Assembly (NCBI GenBank): GCA_934045075.1
Contig: OW203744.1
Span: forward strand, 7,317,795 to 7,381,794
Source of the DNA: Yponomeuta sedellus
Taxonomy: Eukaryota; Arthropoda; Insecta; Lepidoptera; Yponomeutidae
DNA length: 64,000 bases
Direction of reading: 5' to 3'
Program-made: the position numbers and the translations under genes
In this document: piece by piece, positions 29,552 to 64,000 of the stretch
Numbering within the stretch: position 1 is the stretch's first letter
How the letters are laid out: the number at the start of each line of letters is the position of its first letter
Notes under the pieces: generated by a model
Databases searched by the model: none
The model's input: the letters and a program-made list of their open reading frames with translations, nothing else
Told to the model about the DNA's origin: nothing

Positions 29552-29554
29552 ATC

Positions 29555-46499: not shown

Positions 46500-46680
46500 A
46501 AATAATTATTATAGAAAAACCAAGAAAGACCTGACTGCGTGCTAAATGTTTAGGTAGTAGTTACGAGGAAACATTGGAATTGATATAGCTAGGTAGGTAC
46601 ATTATTGTATTCTTCAGCTTCAGCTTCAAGTTCTTGTTTGTCCTTTTTATCTCCACGAGCATATTTAGTGCATATTACAC
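46500..46680. other. AT-rich spacer before the satellite
   Basis: No feature recognised. Confidence 0.3.
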
Positions 46681-48245
46681 TGAAAAAAATAATCAGTAAA
46701 TCCTAATGAAATATCAGTAAACTTAACTGAAAAAATCAGTTAAAATGGAGCCAACTGTGAAAATGAGTAACTTAAACTGTAACAAAACAGTAAGGGTATA
46801 ACAGTAAATTTTACTGAATAAGTCCGTTATGGAAAACAGTAAAATATAAAACAGTTGAGGAAAACAGTTGAGGAAAACAGTTGAGGAAAACAGTTGATGA
46901 AAACAGTTAAAGAAAACAGTTAAAGAAAACAGTAACTGGAAACAGTAACTTAAGACACCGGATTTAACTGAATAAATACATAAAGGAAAACAGTTAAAGA
47001 AAACAGTTAAGGGAAACATTAATTGCTACTGTTCCACAACAGTAGATCTTACTGATTAGCTACAGTGGCTACTACTGTTTGGAAACAGTAGCAGCTACTG
47101 TACAGTATGTAGTTGCCACTGTTACACAACAGTAGATCTTACTGATTACCTACAGTTGCGAGAGCTGTTCGGGAACAGTAGCAACTACTGTTAGGTATGT
47201 AGTTGCTACTATTACACAACAGCAGATCTTACTGATTACCTACAGTTGCGACAACTGTTCGGGAACAGTAGCAACTACTGTACGGTATGTAGTTGCTACT
47301 GTTACACAACAGTAAATATTACTGATTACCTACAGTTGCGACCACTGTTTGCGAACAGTAGCAACTACTGTACGGTATGTAGTTGCTACTGTTACACAAC
47401 AGTAAATATTACTGATTACCTACAGTTGCGACCACTGTTTGCGAACAGTAGCAACTACTGTACGGTATGTAGTTGCTACTGTTACACAACAGTAAATATT
47501 ACTGATTACCTACAGTTGCGACCACTGTTTGCGAACAGTAGCAACTACTGTTAGGTATGTAGTTGTACTGTTACACAACAGCAGATCTTACTGATTACCT
47601 ACAGTTGCCACAACTGTTCGGGAACAGTAGCAACTACTGTACGGTTTGTAGTTGCTACTGTTACACAACAGTAGATCTAAATGATTACCTACAGTTGCGA
47701 CAACTGTTTGCGAACAGTAGCAACTACTGTTAGGTATGTGGTTGCTACTGTTACACAACAGCAGATCTTACTGATTACCTACAGTTGCGACAACTGTTCG
47801 GGAACAGTAGCAACTACTGTTCGGTAGGTAGTTGCTACTGTTATACAACAGTAGATCTTACTGATTAGCTACAGTGGCTACTACTGTTCGGGAACAGTAA
47901 CAACTACTGTTAAGTGTGTAGTTGGTACTGTTCCACAACAGTAGATCTTACTGATTACCTATAGTTGCGACTACTGTTCGGGAACAGTAGCAACTACCTA
48001 CTGTTAGGTATGTAGTTGCTACTGTTCCACAACAGTGGATCTTACTGATTAGTTACGGTTGCTACTACTGTTGGGAAACAGTGCCAGCTACTGTTAGGTA
48101 TGTAATTGCTACTATTCCACTACAGTAGCTCCTGCTGTAGTTGAACAGTAGCAACTACATACCGAACAGTAGCTGGTACTGTTGCTCAACAGTAGCAGCA
48201 ACTGCGTATGAGCTAAAGGTATTGCTATTGTTGAGGAACAGTGAA
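46679..48245. repeat. ACAGT/ACTGT-rich satellite block with 90-bp palindromic repeat
   Basis: The block opens CACTGAAAAAAATAATCAGT and ends GAGGAACAGTG. From 46857 to 46930 a 13-bp unit GAGGAAAACAGTT repeats. From 47031 to about 48130 there are about 12 units of 90 bp: the word ACTGATTA recurs at 47051, 47141, 47231, 47321, 47411, 47501, 47590, 47680 (as ATGATTA), 47770, 47860, 47950 and 48044. Each unit contains CAGTAGATCTTACTG, ACAGTTGCGACAACTGT, GTTCGGGAAC and ACAGTAGCAACTACTGT, all dyads, plus a 15-bp inverted pair AACAGTAGCAACTAC / GTAGTTGCTACTGTT. Nearly every base is in a palindrome. The plus-strand frame through it is an artefact of 90 being divisible by three. Confidence 0.9.
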
Positions 48246-48361
48246 GAAATATACACAAGTGTTACATAGTAAACATTATTTATTGATGGAACTGAATCTA
48301 TATAAATCAAATACAAATAAACATGAATGTTAAAAAGTAAAAGTTATTCAGTCATTATATG

Positions 48362-48417
48362 TAACTAAATCCAATCAAAATAAACACACTCTTGTTTATT
48401 TTGATTGGATTTAGTTA
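48362..48417. repeat. Perfect 24-bp hairpin
   Basis: Arms 48362-48385 and 48394-48417 are perfect reverse complements, loop ACACTCTT (8 nt). It ends at the stop region of the exon at 48415-48702. Confidence 0.9.
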
Positions 48418-48760
48418 GTTACAAATAAACAATGTATAATTGTCTGCAGATGAACGGAGCCACTCGAAGCATTCTTTTATTTCAGTGTTCTTTGAATCTA
48501 GTTCCACTTCGCTCTCAGACATGATCTCAGGGTGTTCTATATCCGGTGCTGTCCTTTTGTTAGTGGTAGCATACTGCACTGATGCTGTTATCGTTTTTTC
48601 TAAGGAACGACGCGCTCTTGGCTGGTATATTTTATTTCGGCGATACTTAGCCTTCAGATTAGTTAGGTACTGCGTCAAACAGCCGACCATGGGCTCGCCC
48701 AAACACTTCAGGTCCTCTAGTGTAATAAATGGAGATATTTTCTGCTGTAACAGACTAATA
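48415..48760 (-). CDS. Possible last exon of a host-type gene (SAM-like gene)
   Basis: The minus strand reads KISPFITLEDLKCLGEPMVG from about 48745, then LTQYLTNLKAKYRRNKIYQP, a charged segment and SEVELDSKNTEIKECFEWLR, stopping near 48415. This resembles the C-terminal exon of a family of insect multi-exon genes. I could not match its phase to the exon ending at 49088, so an intervening exon may be missing. The stop falls in a hairpin at 48362-48417. Confidence 0.4.
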
Positions 48761-49087
48761 ATTGTTTAAAGACAAATAATTAAACTAATATTAGAGGAAA
48801 ACAATGCGACCCATTGAAACATTTTTTGTTTTGTAGTAGATTAGTAAGCCTTTCACAACACTACCTTATCGAGTAGCAGAATTCGGCCATTATTGCTCAC
48901 TATACTTTCATCTAAATCGGTTCAGCAATTTAGGAGTGAAAAAGTAACTGACATACAGACAGATAGACAGTCAGTCAGACCGACAGACAGAGCCACATTT
49001 ATTTTATTTATAATATTTACCATGGAAGTGTACTTTATAAATGGGACACAGGGTGATGTCATTTAGAAATATAAATTTTAAAACTTA

Positions 49088-49281
49088 CTAATTTCTCGAA
49101 TCCAATGGACATATACGTAATTTGTTATTGGTGCCTTCGGATCATGTTTTACTATTTCTGTCGCAATCTCTCGGGTTAAAGTTCTTCGTAGTTGATCCCC
49201 CAAAGGATTTAGACGCTGTTTAAGAAGCAGTTTGCCCTCTTGTGTACTGTTGAGTAGTGAAATTAAGTCCTGGCATTTGTT
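49088..49281 (-). CDS. Internal exon of the SAM-like gene
   Basis: Bounded by TTTCCAG (acceptor, 49282) and GTAAGT (donor, 49087). It encodes NKCQDLISLLNSTQEGKLLL, then GDQLRRTLTREIATEIVKHD and ITNYVYVHWIREI. Both splice sites are canonical and the frame is fully open. Not a transposon domain that I recognise; it may be a host gene. Confidence 0.5.
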
Positions 49282-49484
49282 CTGGAAAGTAAAAATGTGA
49301 CATTTATTATATTTATTGGAAAGTAGCAATGTGGCAGAAGAAATAAAATGTTATCTAAATCTAGGTCTAGTAACAATATTAGTAGAAATTATGCTTTCAC
49401 GACCGCTGCGAAAGCGGGACTCAGGTATATGTATAGGTTTAATGTCTAGGTCTATGTGCTTTTCTGTAGAATAGGTACACTTAC

Positions 49485-49619
49485 ATTCAATTCTTGCAAG
49501 CTTGAAATTGTTGAACTTGGTGAAGATACTGCAGAGTTGATTGGTGAAGTTAAGCTTGGCGTGAGCCCGTCGACATCTTCTCCGTATATTTCTATTAGTT
49601 TTTCTACACCGCTATCAAT
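49485..49619 (-). CDS. Internal exon of the SAM-like gene
   Basis: Bounded by CTTTCAG (acceptor, 49620) and GTAAGT (donor, 49484). It encodes SGVEKLIEIYGEDVDGLTPS and INSAVSSPSSTISSLQELN, a Ser/Thr-rich linker. 135 bp, open, same strand and order as the exons at 49088 and 51780. Confidence 0.45.
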
Positions 49620-49899
49620 CTGAAAGATCATCAATGAGTAAATTAATTTATAATACCTGTTGCGTAAATTTTTATCGAGCAGGGTAGCGAGCATGATAGG
49701 TTCGAGACTTTATTTACTATATACGATTCTGACAAAAAATTTAGTATAATGAGACTAATGTTGAGTCGATGAATACAGACAATAATTATTTTTAGATACC
49801 TGGAAACTTGTAGTAGATTTCCAATCAGACAGACATTTTTTAAATTTGGCCTGTGGGCCAATTGGAGAGACCAATTATTATTTAATTTGGTCATCGTCC

Positions 49900-51779
49900 A
49901 ATAAAGCCAGGGCTGTTATGTCCACTTCGTTTTCTAGAATAATCGAAAAAAGAATGCAATGATGACTAGCTAACGTTTATTAAGAAGATAAGTAAACAAA
50001 CACCCAGTTAAAAGGTTAACAGCAGGCAACATAACATAAAAATCAAGAGTTTAGGTTAGATTTAGTTTTTTTAGTCCCAAAAGTTTAACAAGAATATGAA
50101 AATCATAGTATTTAACATTTTAGATTTTCATACAGTCTTTAAATAGTACCTACAGTCACCAGCACAAATAAACAGCCTGTCAAATATTTATGCTGGTCAC
50201 TGTACATATTATTGTCGAGGTTTGAGCAATTGAAGGCAGAGTAATATTGGTAGTACAAGGCTAAGCCAAGCCCTTTTTAACTAAACAACGGCATGAATTG
50301 CTATTTTGACCAAAACTTTTATGGTTTATCTCTCTTATTTGCGGATAAACAATAAAAAAATAATTAAAATGTACCTAAAAACACCCAATTTATGTAAATA
50401 TTACAAAACTCAAAGGAATAGTTTATAAGTTACTGTCAAAATAAAAATTTTTTGTACATGCCGACTGTACTTTTCTGTATACCGTCACCAACTATTCAAT
50501 GAGACGGTTCTAACGAGCCCAAAGTCAATGGGCTTATGTCGGTTAAGTACTGAATTCCCATGGCTATCTTCTGTCTCCATCATTAGATCAGCTTGATGGT
50601 ACCATAATATTGAATAGTCACCAAACTATACCTTTACCAAAAATTGGTTGAAGATATCTGCTTCAAAATTGAGTTGAAAGATTCCACCCAAACATAGTTA
50701 CATACATACCTACATACATAGTTAGGTACATACATCGCAAGTTAATACAAAGCTTGTAAAAAGCAAAAAGCAGTTTCTATTACATACTGTAGTCTTGAAA
50801 ATTCATGGCTTATATTGTTACTTACATACCAAAGAGATTTTATTTTTTTCAATTTTATAGACAAAAAAAAGCCACTTAAATACCACAGCATACCACAAGC
50901 AAAGATCACACATTGCAACATTCACTTAATATAAATTTTACCATGATTAACTGTACCATATTATGTTATTAATAATATGTAGATCCGCTTAAATTGGTAA
51001 AATTTGACTATGCAGTTACAGGTGCATATTTTCTGAAATAAATTTGATTGCATGAATAAAATGGTATTTTGTTGGAGTAACAGACAGGTTATAGAAACTT
51101 GGTTTCGGTTATAAAATAAGTGTCAACATAATAATCACACTAAGATTTTTTGAGGTCTTTCGGGGATCTGGGTTGGACTAAAGTAAGGGGGCACAAACAC
51201 TTGAAAAAAATTATCAAGAGTGATGTTATTAAGATACCTATTTTTCTTCATGTTATCGTTGAGCTGTCAGGATGGTATAGGTGCTGGGCAAGCCTACTAC
51301 ATCTAAACAATGTCCCAGGCACTGCAGCGTCTGAGTGGTCTCTTCACCCATCTAGTGTGAGTGAAGGTGCCACTGGACGCTGTATAAATCATCTCATTAC
51401 GTAGATGCAAAGGCCATTCTTTCTTTTATTGTTGAGAATATGCTAAAATCCCTTCGTAAGCACGTTTTGTAAAGTGCGTTTCAACGAATAGTAATTATGC
51501 CACTATGTTGGCAGCAATGCAGCCAACATTATGCGCACCAAAATTAGACAGTTACGGTCTTATAGACTTATTTATAAAAACTCAATTCCTTAAACACTCC
51601 AAAATCGCCGTTAATCGGCGTGGTCAATAGTCTGTGGTGGAGGTTTTACAAGGAAAAGATGTAGCCACAGATTAAATAAACAAAGTCTTTGATTGGTTTT
51701 AGAGGAATGGTGTTTTTATAAATTAGACCGTATAGAACTGTTGGACCAACTCATAAATAGCAGGACATGAACAACTTAC
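49900..51779. other. Presumed intron sequence with repeat scraps
   Basis: No coding recognised. It contains a small palindromic element at 50151-50204, an ancient moth repeat around 50480-50630 (ATCAGCTTGATGGTACCATA), and a further repeat near 51260-51410. If the exons on either side belong to one gene, this is an intron of about 1.9 kb or more. Confidence 0.4.
50151..50204. repeat. Small inverted-repeat element
   Basis: TACAGTCACCAGCA (50151-50164) and TGCTGGTCACTGTA (50191-50204) are inverted with one mismatch, 26-nt spacer. This CACCAGCA word with ATTTATGCTGG is widespread in moth genomes. Confidence 0.5.
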
Positions 51780-51847
51780 CAAGAAATGCCTCAGCGTATT
51801 TGTCGAAGCCCCATGTTTTCAGAAGTTCACCTACATCGTTAAATGAG
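51780..51847 (-). CDS. Exon with SAM-domain-like start
   Basis: Between TTTGCAG (acceptor, 51848) and GTAAGT (donor, 51779) lies FNDVGELLKTWGFDKYAEAF, which fits the first helices of a SAM domain (LL..WG....Y...F). Such domains mediate protein or RNA binding. The rest of the SAM domain should be in a further exon that I did not find before 49619. Only 22 residues, so uncertain. Confidence 0.4.
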
Positions 51848-51943
51848 CTGCAAACAATACAAATCCTCCATAAAATTACAGAAATCAAAGAACGGCAAGT
51901 ACCTACCTATGAAATGAAAGAATGCCAACATTATGCCTGTGCA

Positions 51944-52065
51944 ACCATCACAAACGACAATTCCTGTGTCGATCAACACGCTTGGAGCTCGGCCGTGTAG
52001 GCAAAAAGAGCGTGTCGATCGACACGGACGGGGTGAGGAAGGAACCATCACAAACGACAATTCCT
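51944..52065. repeat. Direct repeat of 22 bp, 100 bp apart
   Basis: AACCATCACAAACGACAATT begins at 51943 and again at 52043, followed by CCT in both. Between them GTGTCGATC(A/G)ACAC occurs twice (51967 and 52014). It looks like a local tandem duplication. Confidence 0.6.
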
Positions 52066-52156
52066 CTGCAAGTAGGTATTAAATTACTTACCTCATCGTC
52101 CTCAGAAAAAGCACGCACGCACGCGGGTACAGAACCAGATAGGTACAAAATCAAAA

Positions 52157-52227
52157 TGGAAAATGGTCAGTGACGCGACGAGCGTGACACGCCATGTCTC
52201 GCTCGTCGCGTCACTGACCATTTTCCA
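52157..52227. repeat. Perfect 28-bp GC-rich hairpin
   Basis: Arms 52157-52184 and 52200-52227 are perfect reverse complements with a 15-nt loop. The stem includes GTGACGCGACGAGCG. Strong GC content in an AT-rich setting predicts a very stable stem. Confidence 0.9.
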
Positions 52228-52721
52228 ACATGGCAACAGCAGTGTTGCCAGAGCCCGCACGTCATAAATTATACGAGCAACGTCAAAAAGTCACAAAATT
52301 TATCCAAAAGTTACAATTTCATACCAAATATTGTTCCTGTGATGCAACCACTTGAAAGTAACTTTAAATCATTCGTATCCTCATTTTTGTTTGGAATGAC
52401 TTGAAAAATGAAAAAGAAAATGTACAAAAAAGACACCGGTTAGAATAAGTATCTACGTTTTTTTTACATTTTCTTTTTCATTAATAGTCTATTTTTCCAA
52501 ACTTGTGTTGTTTTGTATAACTAAATCCCAAATAAATGGCCCGCTTTCTTTAAGAGTTAAAAGATGAATTCAAAACACTTCATACATGGCACTTATAGGC
52601 TTGCGTGCCGTTAGAAAAATCGTGTTGCTTTTGGAACGCGGCTGTCAAATTTCGCTTGCACAGATAATTATAATTATAAAAAAAACAGAGTTTTGAGTTT
52701 TATTATAATAAGTCCCGGCTG

Positions 52722-52990
52722 TGTGGTGTCGGCCTAGAGACTAGGGCTGTGTGGTATCGGCCAGCACCAATTCAAATTCTTCCCGCGGGTGTCGTAAAAG
52801 GCGACTAAGGGACACAAACCGGAGGGTGGGCCGCAGCGCCCCCTGCAGTACAATTCCTTTAAACTGCGATCCCCAACCCGCATGCCCAGCGTGGGGATTA
52901 TGGGCACTACCCCCTAATGATGGTACAACCTTGCGCTCATTAGGGGAGGGCTATGTCCAGCAGTGGACTAATATAGTCTGAAGAAGAATA
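52722..52990 (+). repeat. Dispersed moth retroposon 3' end, copy 2
   Basis: Nearly the same as 27755-28020, including GGCGACTAAGGGA, CGCAGCGCCCCCTGCAG and GGCTATGTCCAGCAGTGGAC with a GAAGAA tail. The first 20 bp (GTGTGGTGTCGGCCTAGAGA) are partly duplicated (52716 and 52747). Confidence 0.65.
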
Positions 52991-53049
52991 ATAAGTCCCA
53001 CAATCACACCAAGTTTAATGCCTATGTGTACTACCAAAAACAAAAACAC

Positions 53050-53585
53050 AGGCCAAGTGCGAGTTGGACTCGGGCACGAAGAGTTCCGTACAATCTATAA
53101 TATAAAAATGAATACCTATTTCCCTTGGTCATGCCATCACGCGTGAACGGCTGGACGGATTTCACTAATTATTTTTTGTTTTATTTGTTGTCACTGTTTG
53201 TTATCACTTATTATAAGGAGAAGGTTCTTATAAAAGAAAAAAAATAAGAAAATAGCGCAAAAAATAATTAGAAAATTTTAGAATACGGGACGCAGATGAT
53301 CGCTGGCACCAGCTAGTTATCTACACAATATTAGACACAAAGATAAAAAAACGGCAAAAAAGTCTCGTTTGTTGTATAAGAGCCCCCTTAAATATTTATT
53401 TTTGAAGTGAATATACAACTAAATACTCTGTGAATATTTCAAGCGTCTGCCTGTTGCCGTTATTAATAATATGTTGCAAAAAACGGCAAAAAACGACGAT
53501 CAGACAAACCGCGTAGGCGCGGAGAGTAATAGGGTTTGACAAGGGTTTGACACCCTTGGGGTATAGAACCCTAAAAGACATAATA
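53050..53585. repeat. Composite dispersed repeat (Helitron- or MITE-like)
   Basis: The left end GGCCAAGTGCGAGTTGGACT with CGAAGAGTTCCGTAC (53051-53092) and the right end GGGTATAGAACCCTAA (53560-53575) are the two conserved sides of a repeat abundant in Lepidoptera. In between, GTGAACGGCTGGACGGATTT (53143) and ACCAGCTAGTT (53311) belong to another known dispersed repeat, inserted inside. Confidence 0.5.
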
Positions 53586-53628
53586 CAGTCCATTTTTTAT
53601 GGGTTTCCCTCTCTCCCCACAGAGGCAG

Positions 53629-53698
53629 ACAATTATTCCTTCCTTGCATAAGAATAGAAAGATGTTATTCTATTCTTATGCAAGGAAGGAATAATTGT
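53629..53698. repeat. Perfect 31-bp hairpin
   Basis: Arms 53629-53659 and 53668-53698 are perfect reverse complements, loop AGATGTTA (8 nt). It is the longest perfect short-loop palindrome of the window. Confidence 0.9.
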
Positions 53699-54256
53699 TT
53701 AACCATTTTGGTTCTGAGCTCTCCCTGGTTGGCAACCACAGATAGATGGAATCCAACATAGTTCATAATTTGTGAATCTAACAAACGTTTGTTTGTTACA
53801 CTTTATTGCACAATAAAAACGTTATTAAAAATAAAACTTATGTAAGGTAAGTTCTTATTAAAGTTAGAATAAGAATAAAAATGCCCTACCCAGCGGGACT
53901 TTTTTGTGACAGAAGTAAATTTCCCTGGGGTCCTGGAAAATCCTGGGGTTCGAGCTGATTTAAAAAAAGCGAAACCGCGAAGCCTAAAGCGGAAATAGGA
54001 TCCATTGTCAAAAAAGCGGGATAAAAAGCGGAAAAGCGGTGTACCTGGCAACCCTGAATGGAGTGGCCGCGTGGCGCAACAATCGGTTATGGGTGGGGAA
54101 ACAGAGATCACGAACATTTTTATTTGATTGGCAAAATAAGTGATCGCTAGAAAAGTGTTAATCATATTGAGGGAAAACGTATTCTGTTAAAATAAGCCCG
54201 TTTGCTTGTAATTACCTAAATGTTATTTTTTAGATGGATTGAACAATTGAACTTAC

Positions 54257-54299
54257 ATACGATTTTTTACTTTTGATGGTTGAAAGTAAAAAATCGTAT
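54257..54299. repeat. Perfect 17-bp hairpin
   Basis: Arms 54257-54273 and 54283-54299 are perfect reverse complements with a 9-nt loop TGATGGTTG. Confidence 0.9.
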
Positions 54300-54324
54300 T
54301 AGGTTAAAGTAACGATACCACTTG

Positions 54325-54490
54325 CTAACGTGAAGGAAAACATCGTGAGGAAACCTGAGTGCCTGAGCTACCACATATCTCACTCAGCGCTTGAAATCGC
54401 TAATCCGCGGTGGGCATGCGTGGTGTTAAGCCCATACTCTCTCTCTGACAGAAGGCCTGTGCCCTACAGTGGGACGTACTTCCTTGTACC
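54325..54490 (+). repeat. Moth LINE/SINE 3' tail
   Basis: GTGAAGGAAAACATCGTGAG, CGCGGTGGGCATGCGTGGTG and GCCTGTGCCCTACAGTGGGA are the standard blocks of a lepidopteran retroposon 3' end. The first block occurs inverted at 21333-21350. Confidence 0.65.
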
Positions 54491-54650
54491 TAGATTGCGT
54501 TACAAACAGCTATCTACTGTACTTAAATTTCTTTTTCTCGGGTTATACCTTGAATATTGTATTGTTCCCGCTTTTGTTGACGCAACCATACACAAAACAA
54601 TATGATAGTCCCATCTTGCCAGTAGTCTTTTTTTTTTTTTTTTTTTAATC

Positions 54651-54656
54651 TTTATT
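54651..54656 (-). terminator. Polyadenylation signal of the LINE
   Basis: AATAAA on the minus strand, four bases plus a short spacer before the A-tail. It defines the 3' end of the LINE transcript. Confidence 0.8.
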
Positions 54657-54749
54657 AGTTTAAAAGGGTTTGGTACACAAGTGACCATGTCACCCTCGTA
54701 AATTCTATGCTATAAAGTTATGTACAATATCCAGGACTACAAACTAAAT

Positions 54750-57700
54750 TTATTCCATCCTTGCCTTTAAACCAAACCTTACTAACTTATACAGCATTTT
54801 AGCTTCTTCGGAATTTGGAAGCGCTAAAATGCGGTTACAACCACCGACCGTGGACAAAATTACGTTATCATAAATTTGTTCCCTCACACTACTATTACGC
54901 AGACATTCTGTGAGTATGTGCTGTACATCTTCAACCACCCCGCACACAGAGCAGTTTGGAGAGTTTGTTTTTCTCATCAAAAAAGCGAACTTATTGAGAG
55001 GTAAATGGCCTGATCTTAACCGTAAGGCAGTCACAATATCTCGCCTAGCCAAATCCGATGAATCGAACCAGGGTGACCGAGTTGGATGCGATTGAATTGT
55101 TTTATACCATATGCCCATTGTCAATGACCGCTCATCAAAATACTCTTTCCACAAGGAGTGACAATCATTTTTAACCGTGGGTAAAATATCTGTATAAAAC
55201 GGTAAAAGTTTTGTCGGGTCACCATCAGACTTGGCTAGGTCCGCCAGGCGGTCGGCTTCTTCATTGCCATAAATACCAATATGGGATGGTATCCACTGCA
55301 AGGCTAGAGTTCTTTTACATTTCGCAAATTTTATGATCATATCCAGAATAGAATAGGCTATCGGTGAACATCTAGTGCTAGAGGTACATCGAGCCACATG
55401 CTGGAGAGCGCTCTTAGAATCAGTAAGTACAACACATCTCTCAACATTCAAACTAAAACAATATGAAATTGCTTCTGCCAATGCAAAAAGTTCAACAAAC
55501 ATTATTGACAAATTTGTTGTGATCTTGAACTTTACTGAAATATTATCTTGCAAGTCAAGAAATGCTGCACCTATACCGTCAACCCCTCTAGAACCATCTG
55601 TATATACCTTATAATAGTCTAAATAATTATCAGCTAAAAATTTATCACATATAATATATAGTTCTGTCGTTTTGTATCCCCTTTTCCCTTTATCAATACC
55701 ATCAATAGAACTATTTACAACATTATTAACATCAATATTGCTCACCCAGGTCTCTAAGGAAAACATCTCCAACTTTTCGGACTGATGAATTGAACATTTT
55801 TCCAGTATTTGGTGGACCTTTGCCAATACCGGGGTCTTTTTGTTTCTCCAGTATAGGTTGTCATTACAAGACGCAGAGAGTTTACACAGTAATTCTATGT
55901 TAGAGTTATCTTGAAACGACCGAGACTTAAGCCAGAATTTGCTTGCCAAATACTGACGTCGCAAGTGCAATGGTGTAAGGGCAAGCTCACTTTCCATAAC
56001 ATGTATAGGAGATGATCGGATAAAACCACCTATTACTCTCATTGCAGAGTTTTGGATCTTGTCTAGCTTGTATAGGTGGCTTTTGATAGCGCTGTCGTAC
56101 AAATAGCTGCCATAGTCTATTCGGCTACGAATGATAGCTATGTACAGTCTCCTCAAGTGTCTAGGGTGTACCCCCCATTTAGAACCAGCCAGTACCTTGA
56201 GAATATTAACAAATTTAGAGGTCCTTTCAACTATCTCATTGATGTGTTTACCCCACTTTAACGCACAGTCGAGCCACATTCCCAAATATTTGACAGATTC
56301 TACCAGTGGTATCGATTGACTACCTATCTTAATTGCAACCCTTTGCCGTCTGTACCCCCTACTAAAAAGGCAAACGTGAGTTTTTCGAGGTGATATATCT
56401 AAACCTACTTCATATATAAGCATACATAAGGAATTTAATGCGTGTTGGATTATGGCTTCCGCCTCAGAAATGTTTTTGCATGATGTATAGATAACAAAGT
56501 CATCCGCGTACTGCGAAATCTTGGAGTTTGTCGATTTACAAATGTGGAGTGTGGCTATGTTAAACAAAATAGGAGATAATGGATCTCCCTGTGCGAGTCC
56601 TTTACCGGTTTGTCTTGATATTTTATTATCATCAGCTGTACTTATAGAGAGATTTCTAATGCTTAAGAATTCGTATACATACCTACAGATCTTGCTACCA
56701 ATGCCAACATTATTGAGAGTTTGCACTAAAGTAACCACATTGACATTATTATAGGCACTTTCAATGTCAACGAAACAAGCCAAAGTTACTTCTTTATTTG
56801 CAAAGCTAAGCTGGATGTTACAAACAAGTTGGGTGAGATTATCTAAACATGATTTTGTTTTCCTGAACCCAACGGTATCTTGAGAAAAAATACCATTTTT
56901 CTCCAGATACCATTCGATTCGATTTTTAATTACTGAGTGAAATATTTTACATGGGCAAGATAGCAACGCAATTGGTCTTACTTGAGAAGAGCTCGAGTTG
57001 GAACTGCTATTGGACTTGGGGATTGCAACTAATTTAACCTCTCTCCATTGATATGGAACGAATCCAAGCGCCAAGAAACTATTATATATCTGTACCAAAT
57101 ATTGCTTGCCAACAACAGGGATATTTTTTAACATGGAAAATGTAATCCCGTCCTCACCCGGCGCGGTATCTTTAATTTTAATGGTATTTTCTAGTTCAGC
57201 TAGGGAAATTGGTGTCTCTAGTGCGTCATTGGCCGAATAATTTATTGGTGGTTCCGGGGTTACAAAATCCGGGCACAGACTTTGCATCAAATTTTCAGCT
57301 GAACCATAATCTATTTGTGTTCTTTGTTGAAGATAACCTTTCAGCCACCGCATACGTTTCCACATTTCCCCTGCACTAACGTTTACATCCATACCACTAC
57401 AGAACTCTTGCCAAGCTTTATCCTTGGCTTTACGTATGATTCTCTGAGCATTCGATATTCTGTCTTGCAATCTCTCCAAGTTTTCTGGCGTGGGGTTTCC
57501 TCTAAAAACTGCTAATGCCCGCCTTCGCTCTGCGACTGCTTGGGAAATGCTTGCACTCCAGTAAAACTTAGGTTTAAATTTCTGTGCACGAAGGGGATTA
57601 TTGCAAATTTTCAGTTTAGGGATACACTCATCCGCGGCTTTGTTGACAATATCAAGAAACATATTATAATTACATTGAGGGTCATCACTAAGTGAAAAGT

Positions 57701-58478
57701 TATTGGAAAAACATTGTTGGAGTGTATTTTTGTAGGAAACCCAGTCCGCCTTCTTAAAATTTCTTCTAAAGGAATTACTGGACATTTCGTTCGCATTTAT
57801 ACCTATACTATACATAATAATAAGGTGGTCACTGCCCAGACTTTCATTTGTGACTCTCCATTTAAATCTCAATGCGATATCTGCCGACACAAACGTAATG
57901 TCCGGGGAGCTACTCTGCATTCGACCATTGACGAGCTTGATCCGCGTAGGTGAGCCATCGTTTAGGGAGACAAAATTTTTATCAATTAAACAGTCAAATA
58001 AATGAGATCCCCTTGCATCTGTTCGGCTGGACCAATTAGAATGGTGTGCATTGAAGTCACCTGCAATAATTGTTTTATTTGAACACAAGGAAAAGATAGT
58101 ATCCCAGTCATTTTGCCTGGTATGCACAGAAGAAGGACAATACAGAGACAGTACGTCCTCAATACATTCACAGTTGAATAATTTTAAATGGACCAGTTGA
58201 ATACCGGTGTTTGACAACTCAGTATTAAGACATTGAAATTTGATAGACGTGTGTATAATTATTGCCACTCCACCGTAAGAGTCACATCTGTCTTGGCGGA
58301 TGATGTTATATCCACTAATTCTCAAGGTACTGCCTGGTTCCAGCCAAGTTTCTGACAAGATACAAATATGGATTTTCTCTTGGGCTAACAACAATTCTAA
58401 TTCTCTTAACTTCGGGCGAGCACTTTGTGCATTCCATTGAATAATATTTAACTCAATTAACCTACTATTATTAGCCAT
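54750..58478 (-). CDS. LINE ORF2: endonuclease, reverse transcriptase, RNase H
   Basis: A 1242-codon intact frame. The AP-type endonuclease (about 1-235) shows NIIQWNAQSARPK, ILSETWLEPG (Glu), GDFNAHHSNWS (about 139) and SDHLIIMYSI (about 215). RT spans about 430-700 with TAPGEDGITFSML, GFRKTKSCLDNL, LAQGDPLSPILFNIA and QYADDFVIY (YADD at 657-660). RNase H begins at VYTDGSRGVDGIGAAF (Asp 961), continues ELFALAEAI and LTDSKSALQH, and ends WIPSHIGIYGNEEADRLADL (about 1063). A C-terminal CCHC finger CSVCGVVEDVQHILTEC starts at 1176. It makes a target nick and primes cDNA there. The start overlaps the ORF1 stop by eight bases, ATGGCTAA, pointing to termination-reinitiation. A Ser/Asn-rich insert (KSNSSSNSSSSQV) sits in the RT fingers. 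Confidence 0.95.
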   Translation of the reverse strand: MANNSRLIELNIIQWNAQSARPKLRELELLLAQEKIHICILSETWLEPGSTLRISGYNIIRQDRCDSYGGVAIIIHTSIKFQCLNTELSNTGIQLVHLKLFNCECIEDVLSLYCPSSVHTRQNDWDTIFSLCSNKTIIAGDFNAHHSNWSSRTDARGSHLFDCLIDKNFVSLNDGSPTRIKLVNGRMQSSSPDITFVSADIALRFKWRVTNESLGSDHLIIMYSIGINANEMSSNSFRRNFKKADWVSYKNTLQQCFSNNFSLSDDPQCNYNMFLDIVNKAADECIPKLKICNNPLRAQKFKPKFYWSASISQAVAERRRALAVFRGNPTPENLERLQDRISNAQRIIRKAKDKAWQEFCSGMDVNVSAGEMWKRMRWLKGYLQQRTQIDYGSAENLMQSLCPDFVTPEPPINYSANDALETPISLAELENTIKIKDTAPGEDGITFSMLKNIPVVGKQYLVQIYNSFLALGFVPYQWREVKLVAIPKSNSSSNSSSSQVRPIALLSCPCKIFHSVIKNRIEWYLEKNGIFSQDTVGFRKTKSCLDNLTQLVCNIQLSFANKEVTLACFVDIESAYNNVNVVTLVQTLNNVGIGSKICRYVYEFLSIRNLSISTADDNKISRQTGKGLAQGDPLSPILFNIATLHICKSTNSKISQYADDFVIYTSCKNISEAEAIIQHALNSLCMLIYEVGLDISPRKTHVCLFSRGYRRQRVAIKIGSQSIPLVESVKYLGMWLDCALKWGKHINEIVERTSKFVNILKVLAGSKWGVHPRHLRRLYIAIIRSRIDYGSYLYDSAIKSHLYKLDKIQNSAMRVIGGFIRSSPIHVMESELALTPLHLRRQYLASKFWLKSRSFQDNSNIELLCKLSASCNDNLYWRNKKTPVLAKVHQILEKCSIHQSEKLEMFSLETWVSNIDVNNVVNSSIDGIDKGKRGYKTTELYIICDKFLADNYLDYYKVYTDGSRGVDGIGAAFLDLQDNISVKFKITTNLSIMFVELFALAEAISYCFSLNVERCVVLTDSKSALQHVARCTSSTRCSPIAYSILDMIIKFAKCKRTLALQWIPSHIGIYGNEEADRLADLAKSDGDPTKLLPFYTDILPTVKNDCHSLWKEYFDERSLTMGIWYKTIQSHPTRSPWFDSSDLARRDIVTALRLRSGHLPLNKFAFLMRKTNSPNCSVCGVVEDVQHILTECLRNSSVREQIYDNVILSTVGGCNRILALPNSEEAKMLYKLVRFGLKARME

Positions 58479-59967
58479 TGCAATTAAATACAGATTTCAA
58501 CAAGGGTATTTCTGACACGTAATCGACTGCTGCACACATGATATACTCAATCACATACTTAGCGCATAACTTAAACTTTTCCTCCCACGAAACGTTCTGT
58601 ACAAAGATCAGGTCTTTCAATTTTCCCAGTAACTCATTGAACGTACTTCCTTTGCTTTTGTTGGTATGTTCTATCTCCTCTTGTGAATCACTTGAGTCCT
58701 CCGATCCTTCAGATAAGCTACCCATCATAAAATCATCCCATTGTAATTCGTGTCTTTCTCGTTGTTTCTTACTCTTACGTCTTTTTCTTTTATTATTCTT
58801 CGCAGAGTGGGAGGCTGGCTGGTGAGACTTAACTGTATTGTCAGACACCTGTTCTGGTATTTCCGGTGTATCCGGTAAAGTTACTTTAACGAAACCATCC
58901 GAGTTTCTTGACTGCCCAGGAAATAGAGACTCGTCCATCATTTGGGTGGTTTGAGCGAGAGCAGGAAATTGTTGGTGATCCCCCAGGTTTATATTTCGCG
59001 GTGATGGTGGAACATAGACCGTCAGTGCTCTCTTATAGGAACAATTAAACTCTGCCATGATTTCTCTCACTCTTTTCTCTTTCACAAACAATGGACAAGT
59101 TCGTGATAATGCCATGTGGTTACCAGCGCAGTTAGGGCATCTGAAGACGGTTGCTTCACAGTTAGCGTGGTTTTTTCCACATTTAGGGCATCTGAGTCTC
59201 ATAGGACAAAGTTTCACAGTGTGTCCGAACTTCCAGCACTTTGAGCATTGAGTGACAGGAAAGACGTAAGGAGTCACTTTTATTCTTGTGTCATAGGTTA
59301 AGACATACCGCGGTAGCAATGGGCCACTGAAGCAAACTTGAACCACCTCTGTCAATTCCCACTCATTCGTCTCGTAGTTTCGTCTTTTTTGCCTCCTAAC
59401 ACTTAGAATAGGGATGTCACAGTGAATACTCTCCATTATTTGTTCTTCCGTCAGTTCCAGATCTATGTCACGTATAACTCCGAAAGATTTGCTAATATCA
59501 TACGTTTTCTGGCAACGAAAGCCCTTGGCAATTAAGCCTTCGCAAGTCAACAGACTATCTGCACTACTTTCTTCCTGAAATTGAATCAGGGCTTTGTATG
59601 GACTCACATATTTTACACGAGTGATATTTTTGATATTTTCTGCCTTCAACATTCGAGCCAGTGAGATCTGCTTCGGCAACTTCTCCTTTGAAAAAATGCT
59701 AACTTCAACATTCTCCTTAGGTATAATCACCTCACTGTCATTACTATCTGCTCGAGCCCACCGCTTACCATTCCGCCCGACCATAGTCCAAACTTCATTC
59801 TGGTCCATGTCGCGAGTACGTTTCTCGGCACGAATTTTGTTACTACCCTCGTTCAGCGCCTCCGCCGAATTACATGTAAAATCAACGCCGTCCACAACAC
59901 AAGTATTTTCTCCACAATTTACGTCTATTTCAACGTCGGAACATTGTTTATCGCTATCCATTTTCAC
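58471..59967 (-). CDS. LINE ORF1: Gag-like nucleic-acid-binding protein
   Basis: A 498-codon intact frame. Residues about 60-240 form an RNA-recognition-like region before the zinc knuckles (KENVEVSIFSKEKLPKQISL, RVKYVSPYKALIQFQ). Three CCHC knuckles lie at about 240-293: CSKCWKFGHTVKLC, CPKCGKNHANC and CPNCAGNHMALSRTC. The C-terminal part is acidic and Ser-rich with a bipartite basic motif KNNKRKRRKSKKQRERH (about 385-402) that may be a nuclear localisation signal. It would coat the LINE RNA. The ATG at 59967 is the first in frame after the 5' UTR. Confidence 0.92.
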   Translation of the reverse strand: MKMDSDKQCSDVEIDVNCGENTCVVDGVDFTCNSAEALNEGSNKIRAEKRTRDMDQNEVWTMVGRNGKRWARADSNDSEVIIPKENVEVSIFSKEKLPKQISLARMLKAENIKNITRVKYVSPYKALIQFQEESSADSLLTCEGLIAKGFRCQKTYDISKSFGVIRDIDLELTEEQIMESIHCDIPILSVRRQKRRNYETNEWELTEVVQVCFSGPLLPRYVLTYDTRIKVTPYVFPVTQCSKCWKFGHTVKLCPMRLRCPKCGKNHANCEATVFRCPNCAGNHMALSRTCPLFVKEKRVREIMAEFNCSYKRALTVYVPPSPRNINLGDHQQFPALAQTTQMMDESLFPGQSRNSDGFVKVTLPDTPEIPEQVSDNTVKSHQPASHSAKNNKRKRRKSKKQRERHELQWDDFMMGSLSEGSEDSSDSQEEIEHTNKSKGSTFNELLGKLKDLIFVQNVSWEEKFKLCAKYVIEYIMCAAVDYVSEIPLLKSVFNCNG

Positions 59968-60090
59968 ACCATAAGAACTGCATAATGTTACGGAGAATAT
60001 CGAACGCTTAGATTATTAATACCACAGCGAAACACGTTTGTGCGTCTGGTGCGTTTGGTTTGTAAGTATTAGTTTTGTTGCCAGTAGTCT

Positions 60091-60380
60091 TGCTTGAGCG
60101 ACGTGCGTTCAGCCTTGCATGTCACGCGCAAGTTGATTGAAATCGAGTTCGGGGCGGGTGCGCCGCTGCCGCCGCAGGCCGAGCGAGCCCGTCTGAAGCC
60201 GACCGGTCACGGCTTATATTCGCCTGTGTGCGGCGTGTACCAACGCGGAACGGAATGAGGCTCATGTGTGCGGCTGCGCTCGCGTCGTTCTATGGAGATT
60301 ACCTAGTGTGACACTACGCTGGCGCAGTGTGTAACGTGAGCGCAACGAGATCGCATTTGAATATCGAAAAAAAGTGTTTG
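60091..60380. promoter_or_regulatory. CpG-rich block beside the LINE insertion
   Basis: Unlike its surroundings, this stretch is GC-rich with many CG dinucleotides (GGGGCGGGTGCGCCGCTGCC near 60151, TGCGCTCGCGTCG near 60275). It could be a promoter of a gene lying to the right or the body of another repeat; no gene start is visible. The LINE target site is at its left edge and a SINE lies 40 bp beyond its right edge. Confidence 0.35.
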
Positions 60381-60423
60381 TGTTGATGTTTAAAAAAGTC
60401 ATTAAAAAATAAGTATTACTTTA

Positions 60424-60552
60424 AAAACCTATTTAGAGGCTAAAAATTTCACCCATGCCGGGATTCGAACCCGCAACCTCTGGCTATCCGTGCCAGAGGT
60501 TGCGTTAAATTTGTTCCTTAGCACGGGTTAGTGCATTAAAAATAAAAATAGT
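60424..60552 (-). mobile_element. tRNA-derived SINE, copy D, short snap-back form
   Basis: Flanked by a 15-bp duplication ATAAGTATTACTTTA (60409-60423 and 60553-60567). The left part is the reversed tail and the 3' half of the tRNA-like unit (box B at about 60462-60475 on the minus strand). At the anticodon arm the sequence turns back on itself: CGCAACCTCTGGC, then TATCCGT, then GCCAGAGGTTGCG (13-bp perfect inverted repeat, 60470-60503 region), and then jumps to the forward tail TTAAATTTGTTCCTTAGC. The whole insert is 129 bp. It looks like an aborted copy of the SINE family. Confidence 0.8.
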
Positions 60553-61145
60553 ATAAGTATTACTTTACTTTTTTTATCTGGCCCTATCTCGGATTTATAT
60601 TACACTACGTGTGTGTAATATGAATCCGTGGGCTCTACAGACTGGCTGGAGATAAAAGATTGGATAACCGATTACAGTTTGTCTTATAATCTATGGCAGG
60701 TGTAGAATATGAACTCAAAACTTGTCACAAATCGATGAAAAACGTGTCGAGTGGAGCCCCTTCAAACGCATATATTATTATTAAAATGCGAATAAGATAT
60801 TTTTTGGCAAACACAACAAAACTGTTAATTGTGTCAGTTCATCAATCAGTCATGACTCGGTTGTTGCCGGTTGACTGTGAAATCTGACGGTCGATTGCGC
60901 GTTTACAACCGCCTGGCGGCATTCCGCCTGTCCTGATGTCCTAGGACAAAGGACCCAGGACAGGCAACAGGCAACCGCGTTTTCTCCTGAAAACGCACGT
61001 GTTTTGTCAGGTGGATCTATATTACCGTACGTCGTTGCCAGCAATTTGATTGTAAAACATTTTAACTTTGCATTTTGCTTTGCAAAACAGGAATGAACTA
61101 AAATGGTTTGCGACCTATGCCTTGGCTTCGCCAATTCGCCAGCGA

Positions 61146-61225
61146 CGTTAATGTTTCGGTCAGTAAAAATCACTGTTTCTGATGAAAGTCAGACAGTAAA
61201 AAATAATGTTTCGGTCAGTGAAGAC
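61146..61225. repeat. Stray satellite-like monomer pieces
   Basis: AATGTTTCGGTCAGTAAAAA (61149) and AATGTTTCGGTCAGTGAAGA (61204) match the TAATGTTTCGGTGAGTAAAA word of the satellite array starting near 62590. They lie about 1.4 kb before it. Confidence 0.55.
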
Positions 61226-61639
61226 TACTGTGCTGTGGCGCTACCACGAAAATCGAAATGCGAATATAGTTTTCGAAAAACGAAAATAGACATACAAGAA
61301 CTAAACGTACGAAGCATTTCATAGTAGCCGTTAGCCGCTGTTGGCTTGTCAAATAAAAATAAACGGAGGACTATATTGGTGTAGGTAATTTAGATAGATA
61401 GATCAGGTACCCAAAAGCATTAGGTACACTCCTTTTTTTAGCAGATGTAACACACACATGCATATTTCGATTGCATATTTCGATGTAGTTGCAGAGTATA
61501 TGCGATGGTAATTTTGACCCGTGGTCCTATTGACCCCGGTCTATCCTAATAATAAAAAACAAAGTGGGAGGACGAGTGTTAATTGGCCCAAAATGTGGCG
61601 CCAAGTAACCCTACCTACCCACCTAATCTTTGGCAGACG

Positions 61640-61692
61640 ATCTGCCGATCGGCCTATGTCCTGCAATGGGCGTCAAATGGCTGATGCTGATG
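61640..61692 (+). repeat. Moth retroposon tail fragment
   Basis: GGCCTATGTCCTGCAATGGG followed by CTGATGCTGATG is the common 3' tail with a simple repeat end. Confidence 0.5.
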
Positions 61693-61895
61693 TTCTTAAT
61701 TATTTGAATATTTACCTTGTATTTTATTATGCGACCGAAAAGTACAAGTTACAACCAAAATCACTAACAGTATTAGATTGTACCTAGGTACTTTATTACG
61801 CTATAGACCAGTCTATGTTTTTATAATAAATAGAATAGAATGACTTGGCGATCGCACAGGACCATAGAAGATACAAGCAATAAATCTATCAAATA

Positions 61896-62400
61896 CCGCC
61901 TCTAAACGATGGCCCATGTCGGGCATATACCAAGCATGCAAGCTCACTACGACAATGAATATATATATGCAGAATGGGCCATGATTGCCACTTAATTTTT
62001 CCACGAATGCTTTAATTAGCAACATTTGGCATGTGGACATCTAACGTGTGTCACCATAAACCAACGTTGAAACAGTAGCAGCTGCCGCTGTTTATTTATT
62101 TAGTGTATATAACCACTAACCCGCGTTAAAATCGTAGGTCTCAAAGGCAGGTTAGCTACAAAAACATACAATATAGCACGCGTCTGCACCGCACCGTAAG
62201 CAATACGAACTGAGTGATCGGCGATCGTCTGGACACGCTTACAATCATGGCCACGATTTCCTTTGATGTTTGTCCGAAAAACCGACACAGCGGCGATTGC
62301 ACGCCAACGTCGCCCATCATGGGCCAATGCAGACGATTATGCCCTCTACACGTTCGTAATCGCCTGTATTTGTCCATCATGGGCCATCGTTTAGAGGCGG
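61896..62400. mobile_element. Foldback-type element with 23-bp perfect inverted ends
   Basis: Ends 61896-61918 (CCGCCTCTAAACGATGG...) and 62378-62400 are perfect 23-bp reverse complements. The interior has no coding domain but more ATGGGCCA words (61973, 62318), which suggests subterminal repeats. Flanking duplication was not clear. Confidence 0.65.
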
Positions 62401-62589
62401 CATAACAATATCATATTATGTAATGCAATATGCCATTGATGTTTACCTAGCGAGTTCCATATACATAGTGCTGTGCGATGGCCAGTTAATTCCAGTTATT
62501 ATAAAAATTTAGATAATATCTAATATTTGAAGTGTCACAGTGAAATGTTGTACCTACTAAACTCCAGTGGAGATTGAGTTCTATCTATA

Positions 62590-64000
62590 AAATTTAAAAA
62601 TAACCTTTTTGCTATCAATTAAGTTAAACCGTTCTCATTAGAAATACAGACTCAGTGAAAATAACTATTTCTAAACATTAAATTTTAATGTCTTGCTATC
62701 GATTACGGTAAACCGTCAGAAATACTAAGTCAGTCAGTAAACACGACAGTTTTGGTCAGTGAAAATAACTATTGTAGTTAAACATATAATTTTACTGTTT
62801 AGTAAGATGTTAGAAATTCTGAGTCAGTCAGTACAAAACTAATGTTTCGGTGAGTAAAAATAGCTATTCTTATCATTAAATTTTACTGGTTTGCTGCTGA
62901 CTGAGACAAACTGTTAGAAATACTGATTCAGTCAGTAAAACCTTATTTTTCGGTGAGTAAAAGCAACTATTCTAATCATTAAACTTTACTGTTTGGCTTT
63001 TGACTGCGGTAAACCGTTAGAAATACTAAGTCAGTCAGTAAACACGAAAGTTTTGGCGAGTGAAAATAACTATTGTAGTTAAACATTTAATTTTACTGTT
63101 TAGTAAGCCGTTAGAAATACTGAGTCAGTCAATCCAAAACTAATGTTTCGGTGAGTAAAAATAACTATTCTTATCATTAAATTTTACTGGTTTACTGTTG
63201 ACTGAGACCAACCGTTGGAACTACTGACTCAGTCAGTTCAACCTAATGTCGCAGTGCGTAAAGATAACTATTCTAATAATTAAATTTTACTGTTTGGCTT
63301 TTGAGTGCGGTAAACCGTTAGAAATACTGAGTCGGCCAGTAAAATCTAATGTTTCGGTGAGTGAAAATAACTATTCCAATCATTCAATTTTACTGTTTTG
63401 CTTTTGATTACGCTAAACCGTTGGAAATACTGAGTCAGTCAGTAAAATCTATTGTTTCGGTGAGTGAAAATAACTATTTCAATCATTTAAATTTGCTGTT
63501 TTGCTATTGATAACGCTGAACCGTTGGAATTACTGACTCAGTCAGTACAACCTAATGTTTCAGTGCGTAAAAATAACTATTCTAATCATAAAATTTTACT
63601 GGTTTCCTATTGATCACGCTAAACCGTTGGATATACTGAGTCAGTCAGTAAAACCTATTATTTCGGTGAGTGAAAATAACTATTCCAATCATTTAAATTT
63701 GCTGTTTTGCTATTGATAACGCTAAACCGTTGGAATTACTGACTCAGTCAGTACAACCTAATGTTTCAGTGCGTAAAAATAACTATTCTAATCATTAAAT
63801 ATTACTGGTTTCCTATTGATTACGCTAAACCGTTGGATATACTGAGTCAGTCAGTAAAACCTATTGTTTCGGTGAGTGAAAATAACTATTCCAATCATTT
63901 AAATTTACTTTTTTGCTATTAATAACCCTAAACCATTGGAACTACTGACTCAGTCAGTACAACCTAATGTCGCAGTGCGTAAAGATAACTATTCTAATAA
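62590..64000. repeat. Satellite array with about 103-bp monomers and higher-order repeats
   Basis: Monomers are anchored by CCGTTRGAAATACTGAGTCA. Anchors fall at 62714, 62808, 62912, 63015, 63109, 63213, 63316, 63419, 63522, 63625, 63728, 63831 and 63934. The first six alternate 94/104/103 bp, so the array repeats every 301 bp as a trimer. From 63419 two monomer types (AATTACTGACTCAG with CAGTGCG, and AATACTGAGTCAG with GGTGAG) alternate, making a 206-bp dimer. The array continues past the window edge. The last monomer almost equals the one at 63213, 721 bp (seven monomers) earlier. Confidence 0.9.

What the first reader, a model, noticed from the sequence alone, without database searches (positions are those of the whole stretch)
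47031..48130. A 90-bp satellite made almost entirely of nested palindromes
Each of about 12 units holds four consecutive dyads (CAGTAGATCTTACTG, ACAGTTGCGACAACTGT, GTTCGGGAAC, ACAGTAGCAACTACTGT) plus a 15-bp inverted pair. Direct repeats that also fold into strings of small cruciforms are unusual; most satellites have at most one dyad. Possible roles include protein docking, strand-symmetric transcription or a transposon internal region.
Basis: seen in the sequence. Interest (0 to 1): 0.75.

Follow-up and report, generated by a model that had tools for sequence, protein, structure and literature searches.

The report
Palindromic repeat array at transposon end
The palindrome-rich 90-base repeat is one end region of a large, apparently recently mobile DNA transposon in what is probably a moth genome, and is likely a row of docking sites for a transposition protein; plant transposons of the CACTA type have comparable end regions, so it is a well-ordered example of a known kind.

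Summary
The array is real: Tandem Repeats Finder gives 47023-48128, period 90, 12.3 copies, and its dyads far exceed shuffled controls. It is not a free-standing satellite. It is the left subterminal region of a transposon running from 46678 to 518 bp beyond the window's right edge (17,841 bp, including a LINE insertion). Eight complete copies were found in the genome; all eight have identical terminal 20 bp, inverted ends CACTGAAAAAAATA and a 2-bp target duplication. The second satellite (period 103, from about 62654) is the right subterminal region.

Both ends are dense in one short word, CAGT (4.0-7.1 per 100 bp; 0.57 and 0.61 in two control stretches). In the 90-bp unit seven such words alternate orientation every 11 or 12 bp; the dyads follow from that lattice. 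A three-site lattice pattern occurs 159 times in the genome, 158 of them inside these eight copies.

Ends, duplication and inverted subterminal repeats match CACTA/CMC-type transposons; soybean Tgmt* has comparable stem-loop-forming ends. No transposase was found in the copies. Best explanation: a young, non-autonomous CACTA-like element whose end lattice binds a TNPA-like protein or transposase. Binding is inferred, not shown.

The parts
46678..64000 (+). Whole transposon copy; continues 518 bp beyond the window (L030:1-518), 17,841 bp in all including a 5.5-kb LINE insertion
   Evidence: Seven other copies share this first base and the last base at L030:518; TIRs and 2-bp target duplication
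46678..46691 (+). Left terminal inverted repeat CACTGAAAAAAATA; its partner TATTTTTTTCAGTG lies at L030:505-518, outside the window
   Evidence: Identical terminal 20 bp in 8 of 8 copies; the 23-bp left end occurs exactly 8 times in the genome
46676..46677 (.). 2-bp target duplication TA (second copy at L030:519-520)
   Evidence: TA, TG, TT, TG, TA, TA, TG, CA in the eight copies, matching on both sides in 8 of 8
46692..47022 (.). Left outer subterminal region; CAGT words, partly as a 13-bp direct repeat AAAACAGTTGAGG
   Evidence: 6.67 CAGT per 100 bp, measured on 46678-47022 with the TIR; TRF period 13 at 46848-46933; 7 of 11 same-orientation neighbours spaced 13 bp
47023..48128 (.). 90-bp array, 12.3 units; CAGT lattice, neighbours mostly of opposite orientation every 11/12 bp
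48129..48260 (.). Inner tail of the left subterminal region with degenerate lattice
   Evidence: 6 CAGT sites, 3 of 4 alternating neighbours spaced 11 or 12 bp
48400..49631 (-). Broken, probably captured gene fragment in at least three exon pieces (about 48400-48748, 49084-49284, 49476-49631); the first-named piece holds a stop and changes of frame
   Evidence: 66% identity over 95% of a two-piece query to an uncharacterised protein of Leguminivora glycinivorella; relatives with open exons at C25:6294543-6298106 and C25:6343593-6347156; homology to the first of these stops at 48433
54630..60091 (-). LINE (non-LTR retrotransposon) inserted in the element; 14-bp target duplication 54616-54629 / 60078-60091
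   Evidence: No match of 250 bp or more to this stretch in the other seven copies; endonuclease, reverse transcriptase and RNase H domains; duplication
62654..64000 (.). Right subterminal array, period 103, continuing to L030:328
   Evidence: TRF; CAGT 4.0 per 100 bp, measured on 62600 to L030:325

Best explanation
The array is the left subterminal repeat block of a large, low-copy, non-autonomous DNA transposon of CACTA/CMC type. Shown: the element's ends, inverted repeats, 2-bp target duplications, eight dispersed copies, a different second array at the other end, and one short word (CAGT, in the left array mostly AACAGTAG) concentrated at both ends. In the 90-bp unit that word occurs seven times in alternating orientation about every 11.5 bp, with a decayed eighth site in the remaining gap, so neighbouring sites form palindromes of about 23 bp and four of these make the 90-bp unit. 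Inferred: the word is the binding site of an element-type DNA-binding protein (TNPA-like) or transposase, supplied in trans, which coats both ends, probably as dimers on inverted pairs, and helps pair them for cut-and-paste transposition. The palindromes would then be the geometry of paired sites, not cruciforms in their own right. Unit number drifts by unequal exchange or slippage because several site counts work.
For: Eight copies share exact ends, TIRs and 2-bp duplications. The flanks of the window copy, joined with one TA, keep one open frame across the joint; the part on the right is related to the neighbouring DUF7869-type gene (34% over 111 aa, E 7e-14), so the element split an exon. 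CAGT density is 6.67, 7.05, 4.00 and 4.64 per 100 bp in four end segments against 0.57 inside and 0.61 outside the element. In the window array 61 of 77 neighbouring sites alternate, 57 of those at 11 or 12 bp; 14 of the 16 same-orientation neighbours lie 21 or 23 bp apart, that is, one site missing; the other seven copies show the same pattern. The pattern ACAGT-7N-ACTGT-6N-ACAGT occurs 159 times in the genome (reversed-pattern control: 3), 158 of them in the eight copies. CAGT columns are more conserved than the rest of the unit (0.971 against 0.914, one-sided p = 0.025). Unit number is 10.3 to 15.2 while the outer units stay alike between copies. Precedent: CACTA ends with direct and inverted subterminal repeats bound by TNPA (PMC2613891, PMC8195511, passages); CMC-type termini CA..TG with 2-5 bp duplications (PMC12730594, passages).
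Against: No transposase was found in the copies: five ORFs of the window element gave no CMC-type hit in Pfam (one bacterial IS66 TnpB match far below cut-off), and the one Transposase_21 protein that the family search found in the genome has no convincing match in the eight copies (best E 0.85). The 2.3 and 2.6 kb read on either side of that gene show no CAGT-rich block, and no other place in the genome bears the exact lattice beyond chance, so no autonomous partner is in sight. The Pfam scan of the flanking exon piece alone gave no family. The plant CACTA duplication is typically 3 bp, here it is 2 bp. The conservation test is weak, treats columns as independent and takes its core columns from the same consensus. 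One site of the lattice is lost in 33 of 94 units. No binding data exist. The right array does not show the 11/12-bp lattice (3 of 33 alternating neighbours at 11 bp), only its tip does (3 of 3), and dyads are not enriched in the outer tips.
Confidence: 0.65

Rival explanations
1. Passive minisatellite: the element is CACTA-like, but the arrays grew by slippage and unequal exchange and have no binding function.
For: Unit number varies between copies, with locally amplified identical monomers (window copy) or dimers (C8 and C3 copies); CACTA elements can carry captured satellite arrays (PMC8978399, passages).
Against: The same word is enriched at both ends in two different repeat units and in the non-repetitive tips; orientation and spacing are regular.
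Confidence: 0.15
2. The element belongs to another, perhaps undescribed, transposon superfamily with CACTG ends and 2-bp duplications; the arrays still serve as transposase-binding ends.
For: No CMC transposase found in the copies; 2-bp rather than 3-bp duplication.
Against: CA..TG ends, duplications of 2-5 bp and inverted subterminal repeats are all within the CMC-type range; insect TRC-type CACTA elements have 2-bp direct repeats at their ends.
Confidence: 0.15
3. The palindromes act as DNA or RNA structure (cruciforms, hairpins), for example blocking transcription or marking the ends for repair.
For: Two units fold better than shuffles as single strands (z -2.43 and -4.01).
Against: The one right-array unit folded does no better than chance (z -0.25) although it serves the other end; the best stems are 7 to 9 bp; dyads follow automatically from alternating sites.
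Confidence: 0.05
4. Independent satellite array or piRNA-like locus unrelated to a transposon.
For: Tandem arrangement.
Against: In this genome it was found only at the same place within eight copies of one element with sharp common ends; the lattice pattern has one match outside them.
Confidence: 0.01

Closest known systems
Soybean Tgmt* and Tgm1 (CACTA/EnSpm; PMC2613891, passages)
   Same: Very large element (Tgmt* 20.5 kb), short CACT. inverted ends, asymmetric subterminal regions of direct and inverted motifs that can form strings of stem-loops (12 and 2 in Tgmt*); a DNA-binding protein is thought to bind them.
   Different: Tgmt* makes a 3-bp duplication (ATA), encodes a transposase, has a 17-bp motif in 159 and 732 bp of DNA, and no 90-bp higher-order array is reported in the passages read.
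Maize En/Spm (as described in PMC2613891 and PMC8195511, passages)
   Same: TNPA recognises the subterminal repeats, which are cis-determinants of excision and transposition.
   Different: 12-bp motif of different sequence; 8.3 kb with its own genes.
TRC elements of animals (SmTRC1; Tribolium and Aedes copies; PMC1636069, passages)
   Same: Animal CACTA superfamily, 2-bp direct repeats at insertions; SmTRC1 also has a region of tandem repeats.
   Different: Ends begin CCC; Transposase_21 is encoded; the words subterminal and sub-terminal do not occur in the held text.
Chenopodium Jozin CACTA elements with an internal satellite (PMC8978399, passages)
   Same: CACTA-type element that carries a tandem array and captured gene fragments.
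   Different: 171-bp monomer, 32.5 copies near one end, read there as captured satellite; no palindromic binding-site lattice described in the passages read.

Membership tests
CACTA/CMC-type DNA transposon | Terminal inverted repeats with CA..TG ends (CACTR) | tested here: met
   CACTGAAAAAAATA / TATTTTTTTCAGTG in 8 of 8 copies
CACTA/CMC-type DNA transposon | Target duplication of 2-5 bp (range given in PMC12730594) | tested here: met
   2 bp, matching in 8 of 8 copies; range from passages
Plant-type CACTA/EnSpm in the narrow sense | 3-bp target duplication | tested here: not met
   2 bp in 8 of 8; a third matching base is absent (flanks printed)
CACTA/CMC-type DNA transposon | Subterminal short repeats in direct and inverted orientation at both ends | tested here: met
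   CAGT density and orientation
CACTA/CMC-type DNA transposon | Encodes, or is moved by, a CMC transposase (Transposase_21 with C2C and H motifs) | tested here: inconclusive
   None found in the copies, by Pfam on five ORFs and tblastn with one transposase; expected for a non-autonomous element; one Transposase_21 gene found elsewhere in the genome, no link shown
Pack-type (gene-capturing) transposon | Carries a fragment of a gene that exists elsewhere in the genome | tested here: met
   Pieces of a gene with open exons at two places on C25; the direction of transfer is inferred from the broken state and the homology boundary, and the donor may itself belong to a mobile family
Tc1/mariner | TA target site only (recalled) | tested here: not met
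   TA in 3 of 8, otherwise TG, TT, CA
Helitron | No terminal inverted repeats and no target duplication (recalled) | tested here: not met
   Both present

The most novel reading that the evidence does not exclude
The element's end is a one-motif nucleoprotein track: a single short site laid down about once per helical turn with alternating orientation over more than 1 kb, on which a dimeric end-binding protein polymerises. The tandem 90-bp order is then the by-product of selection for an unbroken lattice plus local duplication, a form of transposon end that I did not find described for animals in the searches made.
Probability: 0.3. Interest if true: 0.55.

Novelty: new member of a known kind. 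Interest (0 to 1): 0.36.

Why it matters
It turns an odd satellite into an interpretable part: the end of a young, gene-carrying, CACTA-like transposon in an insect, probably a moth. Subterminal site arrays and their binding proteins are known mainly from plants; an insect element with so regular a lattice, natural variation in unit number (10 to 15) and near-identical copies would let one ask how many sites an end needs. It also shows how tandem arrays can grow inside transposon ends. If the gene fragment is a true capture it is of some interest in itself, since one survey identified no gene-capturing TIR transposon in the insects it examined (PMC8277862, passages).

Tried and rejected
Free-standing satellite: rejected. 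The DUF7869-type gene at about 44751-46196 as the element's transposase: rejected, because it lies outside the left end shared by all eight copies. Two extra left-end matches (C18 with 1 mismatch, C34 with 2): taken as chance, since no array follows in the 2 kb read. C36 right end: a right-end fragment with the 103-bp array; the 6.1 kb next to it do not continue the element. One right-end match with 2 mismatches on C10 was not read. One lattice match outside the eight copies, on C11, is within what the control pattern gives and was not read. The only Transposase_21 gene found (C20) as autonomous partner: no CAGT-rich block in the flanks read and no similarity to the element. An empty site elsewhere in the genome: none found with the joined flanks. 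Literature: no paper in the library holds DUF7869; none holds all of CACTA, subterminal repeats, transposase, insect; the listings of searches (10 of 65 shown in the last), seen as titles and starts of abstracts, show no description of this array. That is not proof that it is unpublished.

Not answered: a search for the TIR with a nearby CAGT and a search of the genome with the C20 transposase met a busy machine every time. Structure prediction, fold search, Rfam, PHROGs and PADLOC were not used; NCBIfam was used once, without a match over cut-off.

Full report
What was checked. Tandem Repeats Finder reports an array at window 47023-48128 with period 90 and 12.3 copies, in agreement with the finding. 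Dyads with a stem of 6 or more and a loop of up to 7 number 42, against a mean of 5.9 and a maximum of 15 in 100 dinucleotide shuffles. Because a tandem array multiplies any dyad of its unit, a second control shuffled the 90-bp unit and tiled it: four tiled copies of the real consensus hold 16 such dyads, shuffled units 1.77 on average, with 1 of 300 reaching 16; at stem 5 or more 2 of 300 reach the observed number, at stem 7 or more none. The right array is slightly enriched (14, mean 6.7, maximum 13 of 60 shuffles); the outer tips, the interior and two flank stretches are not.

What it is part of. A search of the whole genome from which the window comes (657.5 Mb, 57 contigs, unnamed) found the array at eight places on C25 (the window), C3, C8, C24, C19 (twice), C6 and C12 (only the best candidates are scored there). 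Aligning these places to the window shows a common left boundary at 46678 and a common right boundary 518 bp beyond the window's right edge. In all eight copies the terminal 20 bp are identical, the ends are CACTGAAAAAAATA...TATTTTTTTCAGTG, and the two bases outside match on the two sides: TA, TG, TT, TG, TA, TA, TG, CA. Exact matches to the left 23 bp occur 8 times in the genome (10 with up to 2 mismatches; the two extra are followed by no array); exact matches to the right 24 bp occur 9 times (10 with up to 2 mismatches), the ninth being a right-end fragment on C36. Element lengths are 12.3 to 20.5 kb; the window copy is 17,841 bp because a LINE has inserted at 54630-60091 with a 14-bp duplication. 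In four interior blocks copies differ by 0.32-1.08% within two groups (C25, C12, C19 at 6.97 Mb; and C3, C6, C8, C24, C19 at 11.58 Mb) and by 2.68-3.38% between them; block B is missing for C3. I infer a young element.

Where it landed. The flanks of the window copy, joined with the TA once, keep an open frame across the joint on the minus strand. The part to the right of the element is related to the neighbouring ORF 45585-46196 of a DUF7869-type gene (38 of 111 residues identical, E 7e-14; the DUF7869 hit itself is on the adjoining ORF 45171-45584); Pfam gives no family for the right part alone. The element therefore appears to have split an exon of such a gene. That stretch has no uninterrupted relative in the genome within reach of the search.

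Anatomy of the two ends. The word CAGT (either strand) occurs 6.67 times per 100 bp in the left outer region, 7.05 in the 90-bp array, 4.00 in the right 103-bp array and 4.64 in the right tip, against 0.57 in the interior stretch 48300-54600 and 0.61 in the flank 40000-46670. The two arrays have different units (90 and 103 bp) but share this word. In the consensus of 94 units from the eight copies, seven CAGT sites lie at positions 5(-), 17(+), 28(-), 40(+), 51(-), 63(+) and 74(-): alternating orientation, spacing 12, 11, 12, 11, 12, 11. A decayed eighth site lies in the remaining 21-bp gap; in the outermost unit of all eight copies it reads ACAGTA. In the window array 61 of 77 neighbours alternate, 57 of them at 11 or 12 bp, and 14 of the 16 non-alternating ones lie 21 or 23 bp apart; the other seven copies behave alike. 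The basic unit is thus a palindromic pair of sites of about 23 bp, four to a 90-bp unit, which is why TRF also reports period 23 here. A three-site pattern of the lattice, ACAGT-7N-ACTGT-6N-ACAGT, occurs 159 times in the whole genome, against 3 for the reversed pattern; 158 matches lie in the eight copies, all within their first 2 kb, and the one other listed, on C11, is within the control's number. The right array lacks this lattice: 3 of its 33 alternating neighbours are 11 bp apart, while in the right tip 3 of 3 are 11 or 12 bp apart.

Turnover. Unit number in the eight copies is 10.3, 10.3, 11.2, 11.2, 12.2, 12.3, 13.2 and 15.2. The first three units differ by 0.9% between copies at the same position and the last three by 4.7%, while units within a copy differ by 11.1%. 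The middle turns over: the window copy and the C19 copy at 11.58 Mb have neighbouring identical units, the C8 and C3 copies identical next-but-one units, that is, amplified dimers. I read this as unequal exchange or slippage after the copies separated.

Interior. No transposase was recognised: five ORFs of the window element were scanned with Pfam, without a CMC-type hit, and the one Transposase_21 gene that the family search found in the genome (C20; Pfam confirms Transposase_21) has no convincing match in the eight copies (best E 0.85). On the minus strand at about 48400-49631 lie pieces of a gene whose nearest hit is an uncharacterised protein of the moth Leguminivora glycinivorella (66% identity, 95% of the query; Tortricidae). 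The same gene has open exons at two places on C25 (6.29 and 6.34 Mb), and the genome holds further, more distant relatives, several with open frames; homology with the first C25 place stops inside the last exon at window 48433, and no CAGT array is there. I read this as a genomic gene fragment captured by the element, introns included, and since broken; the gene may itself belong to a mobile or multi-copy family.

How it most likely works. Shown: ends, duplications, dispersal, arrays at both ends with a shared word, and a regular arrangement in the left one that is found nowhere else in the genome beyond chance at this sensitivity. Inferred: the word is a binding site and the arrays collect an end-binding protein. 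The basis is the published plant systems: TNPA recognises the subterminal repeats of En/Spm and is required for transposition, proteins may be supplied in trans, and Tgmt* of soybean has asymmetric direct and inverted subterminal motifs able to form 12 stem-loops at one end and 2 at the other (PMC2613891, passages); [quoted passage not shown] CMC-type elements mostly share CA..TG ends and make 2-5 bp duplications (PMC12730594, passages), and animal TRC elements have 2-bp duplications (PMC1636069 and PMC4298943, passages). Columns of the CAGT cores are somewhat more conserved than the rest of the unit (0.971 against 0.914, p = 0.025), which agrees with selection on the word but is weak evidence. 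Dyads as extruded cruciforms are less likely: stems are short, and the one unit of the right array folded does no better than chance.

Verdict. Strings of palindromes at CACTA ends have precedent in plants; the alternating 11/12-bp lattice organised into a 90-bp tandem array in an insect element is a distinctive variant. I file it as a new member of a known kind; kinship rests on ends, duplication and end structure and not on a transposase.

Noticed in passing
window 45171-45584 (-), 36894-37277 (-), 25714-26097 (-): Three pieces with DUF7869, a domain of unknown function (the last below its curated cut-off), within remnants or genes at about 44751-46196, 36577-37929 and 25714-26097; with the related gene split by the element this suggests a mobile or multi-copy family. 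No paper in the library names DUF7869.
   Followed up: partly
window 29156-34234: Ty3-type LTR retrotransposon with one long open frame (1439 aa) between direct repeats 29156-29551 and 33839-34234 that are 99.5% identical.
   Followed up: no
window 54630-60091 (-): LINE with endonuclease, reverse transcriptase and RNase H domains and a 14-bp target duplication, inserted in the transposon; no match of 250 bp or more in the other seven copies.
   Followed up: yes
C12 copy: L015 and L028, between the places that match window 52142 and 52139: A 4.7-kb insertion with a stretch whose translations are highly repetitive (QQRSAAARVSAR-like); nature unknown.
   Followed up: no
window 18725-19084, 35890-36418, 38117-38591, 60420-60557: A dispersed composite repeat in direct and inverted copies, also present in flanks of other element copies; not identified.
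   Followed up: no
L034-L035 (C36:1918501-1924600 and 1926901-1927200): Right end of the element with its 103-bp array (about 2.5 kb, C36:1924506-1927010) but without the rest in the stretch read: a truncated copy.
   Followed up: partly
C24, C19 (11.58 Mb) and C6 copies, repeat of the stretch matching window 48809-50094: Three copies of the second group carry a duplication of about 1.3 kb that repeats part of the gene fragment.
   Followed up: no
C25:6294543-6298106 and 6343593-6347156: Two similar places, 49 kb apart, with open exons of the gene whose broken pieces lie in the element; weaker relatives with open frames without stops on C1, C8, C13, C19, C21 and C24.
   Followed up: partly
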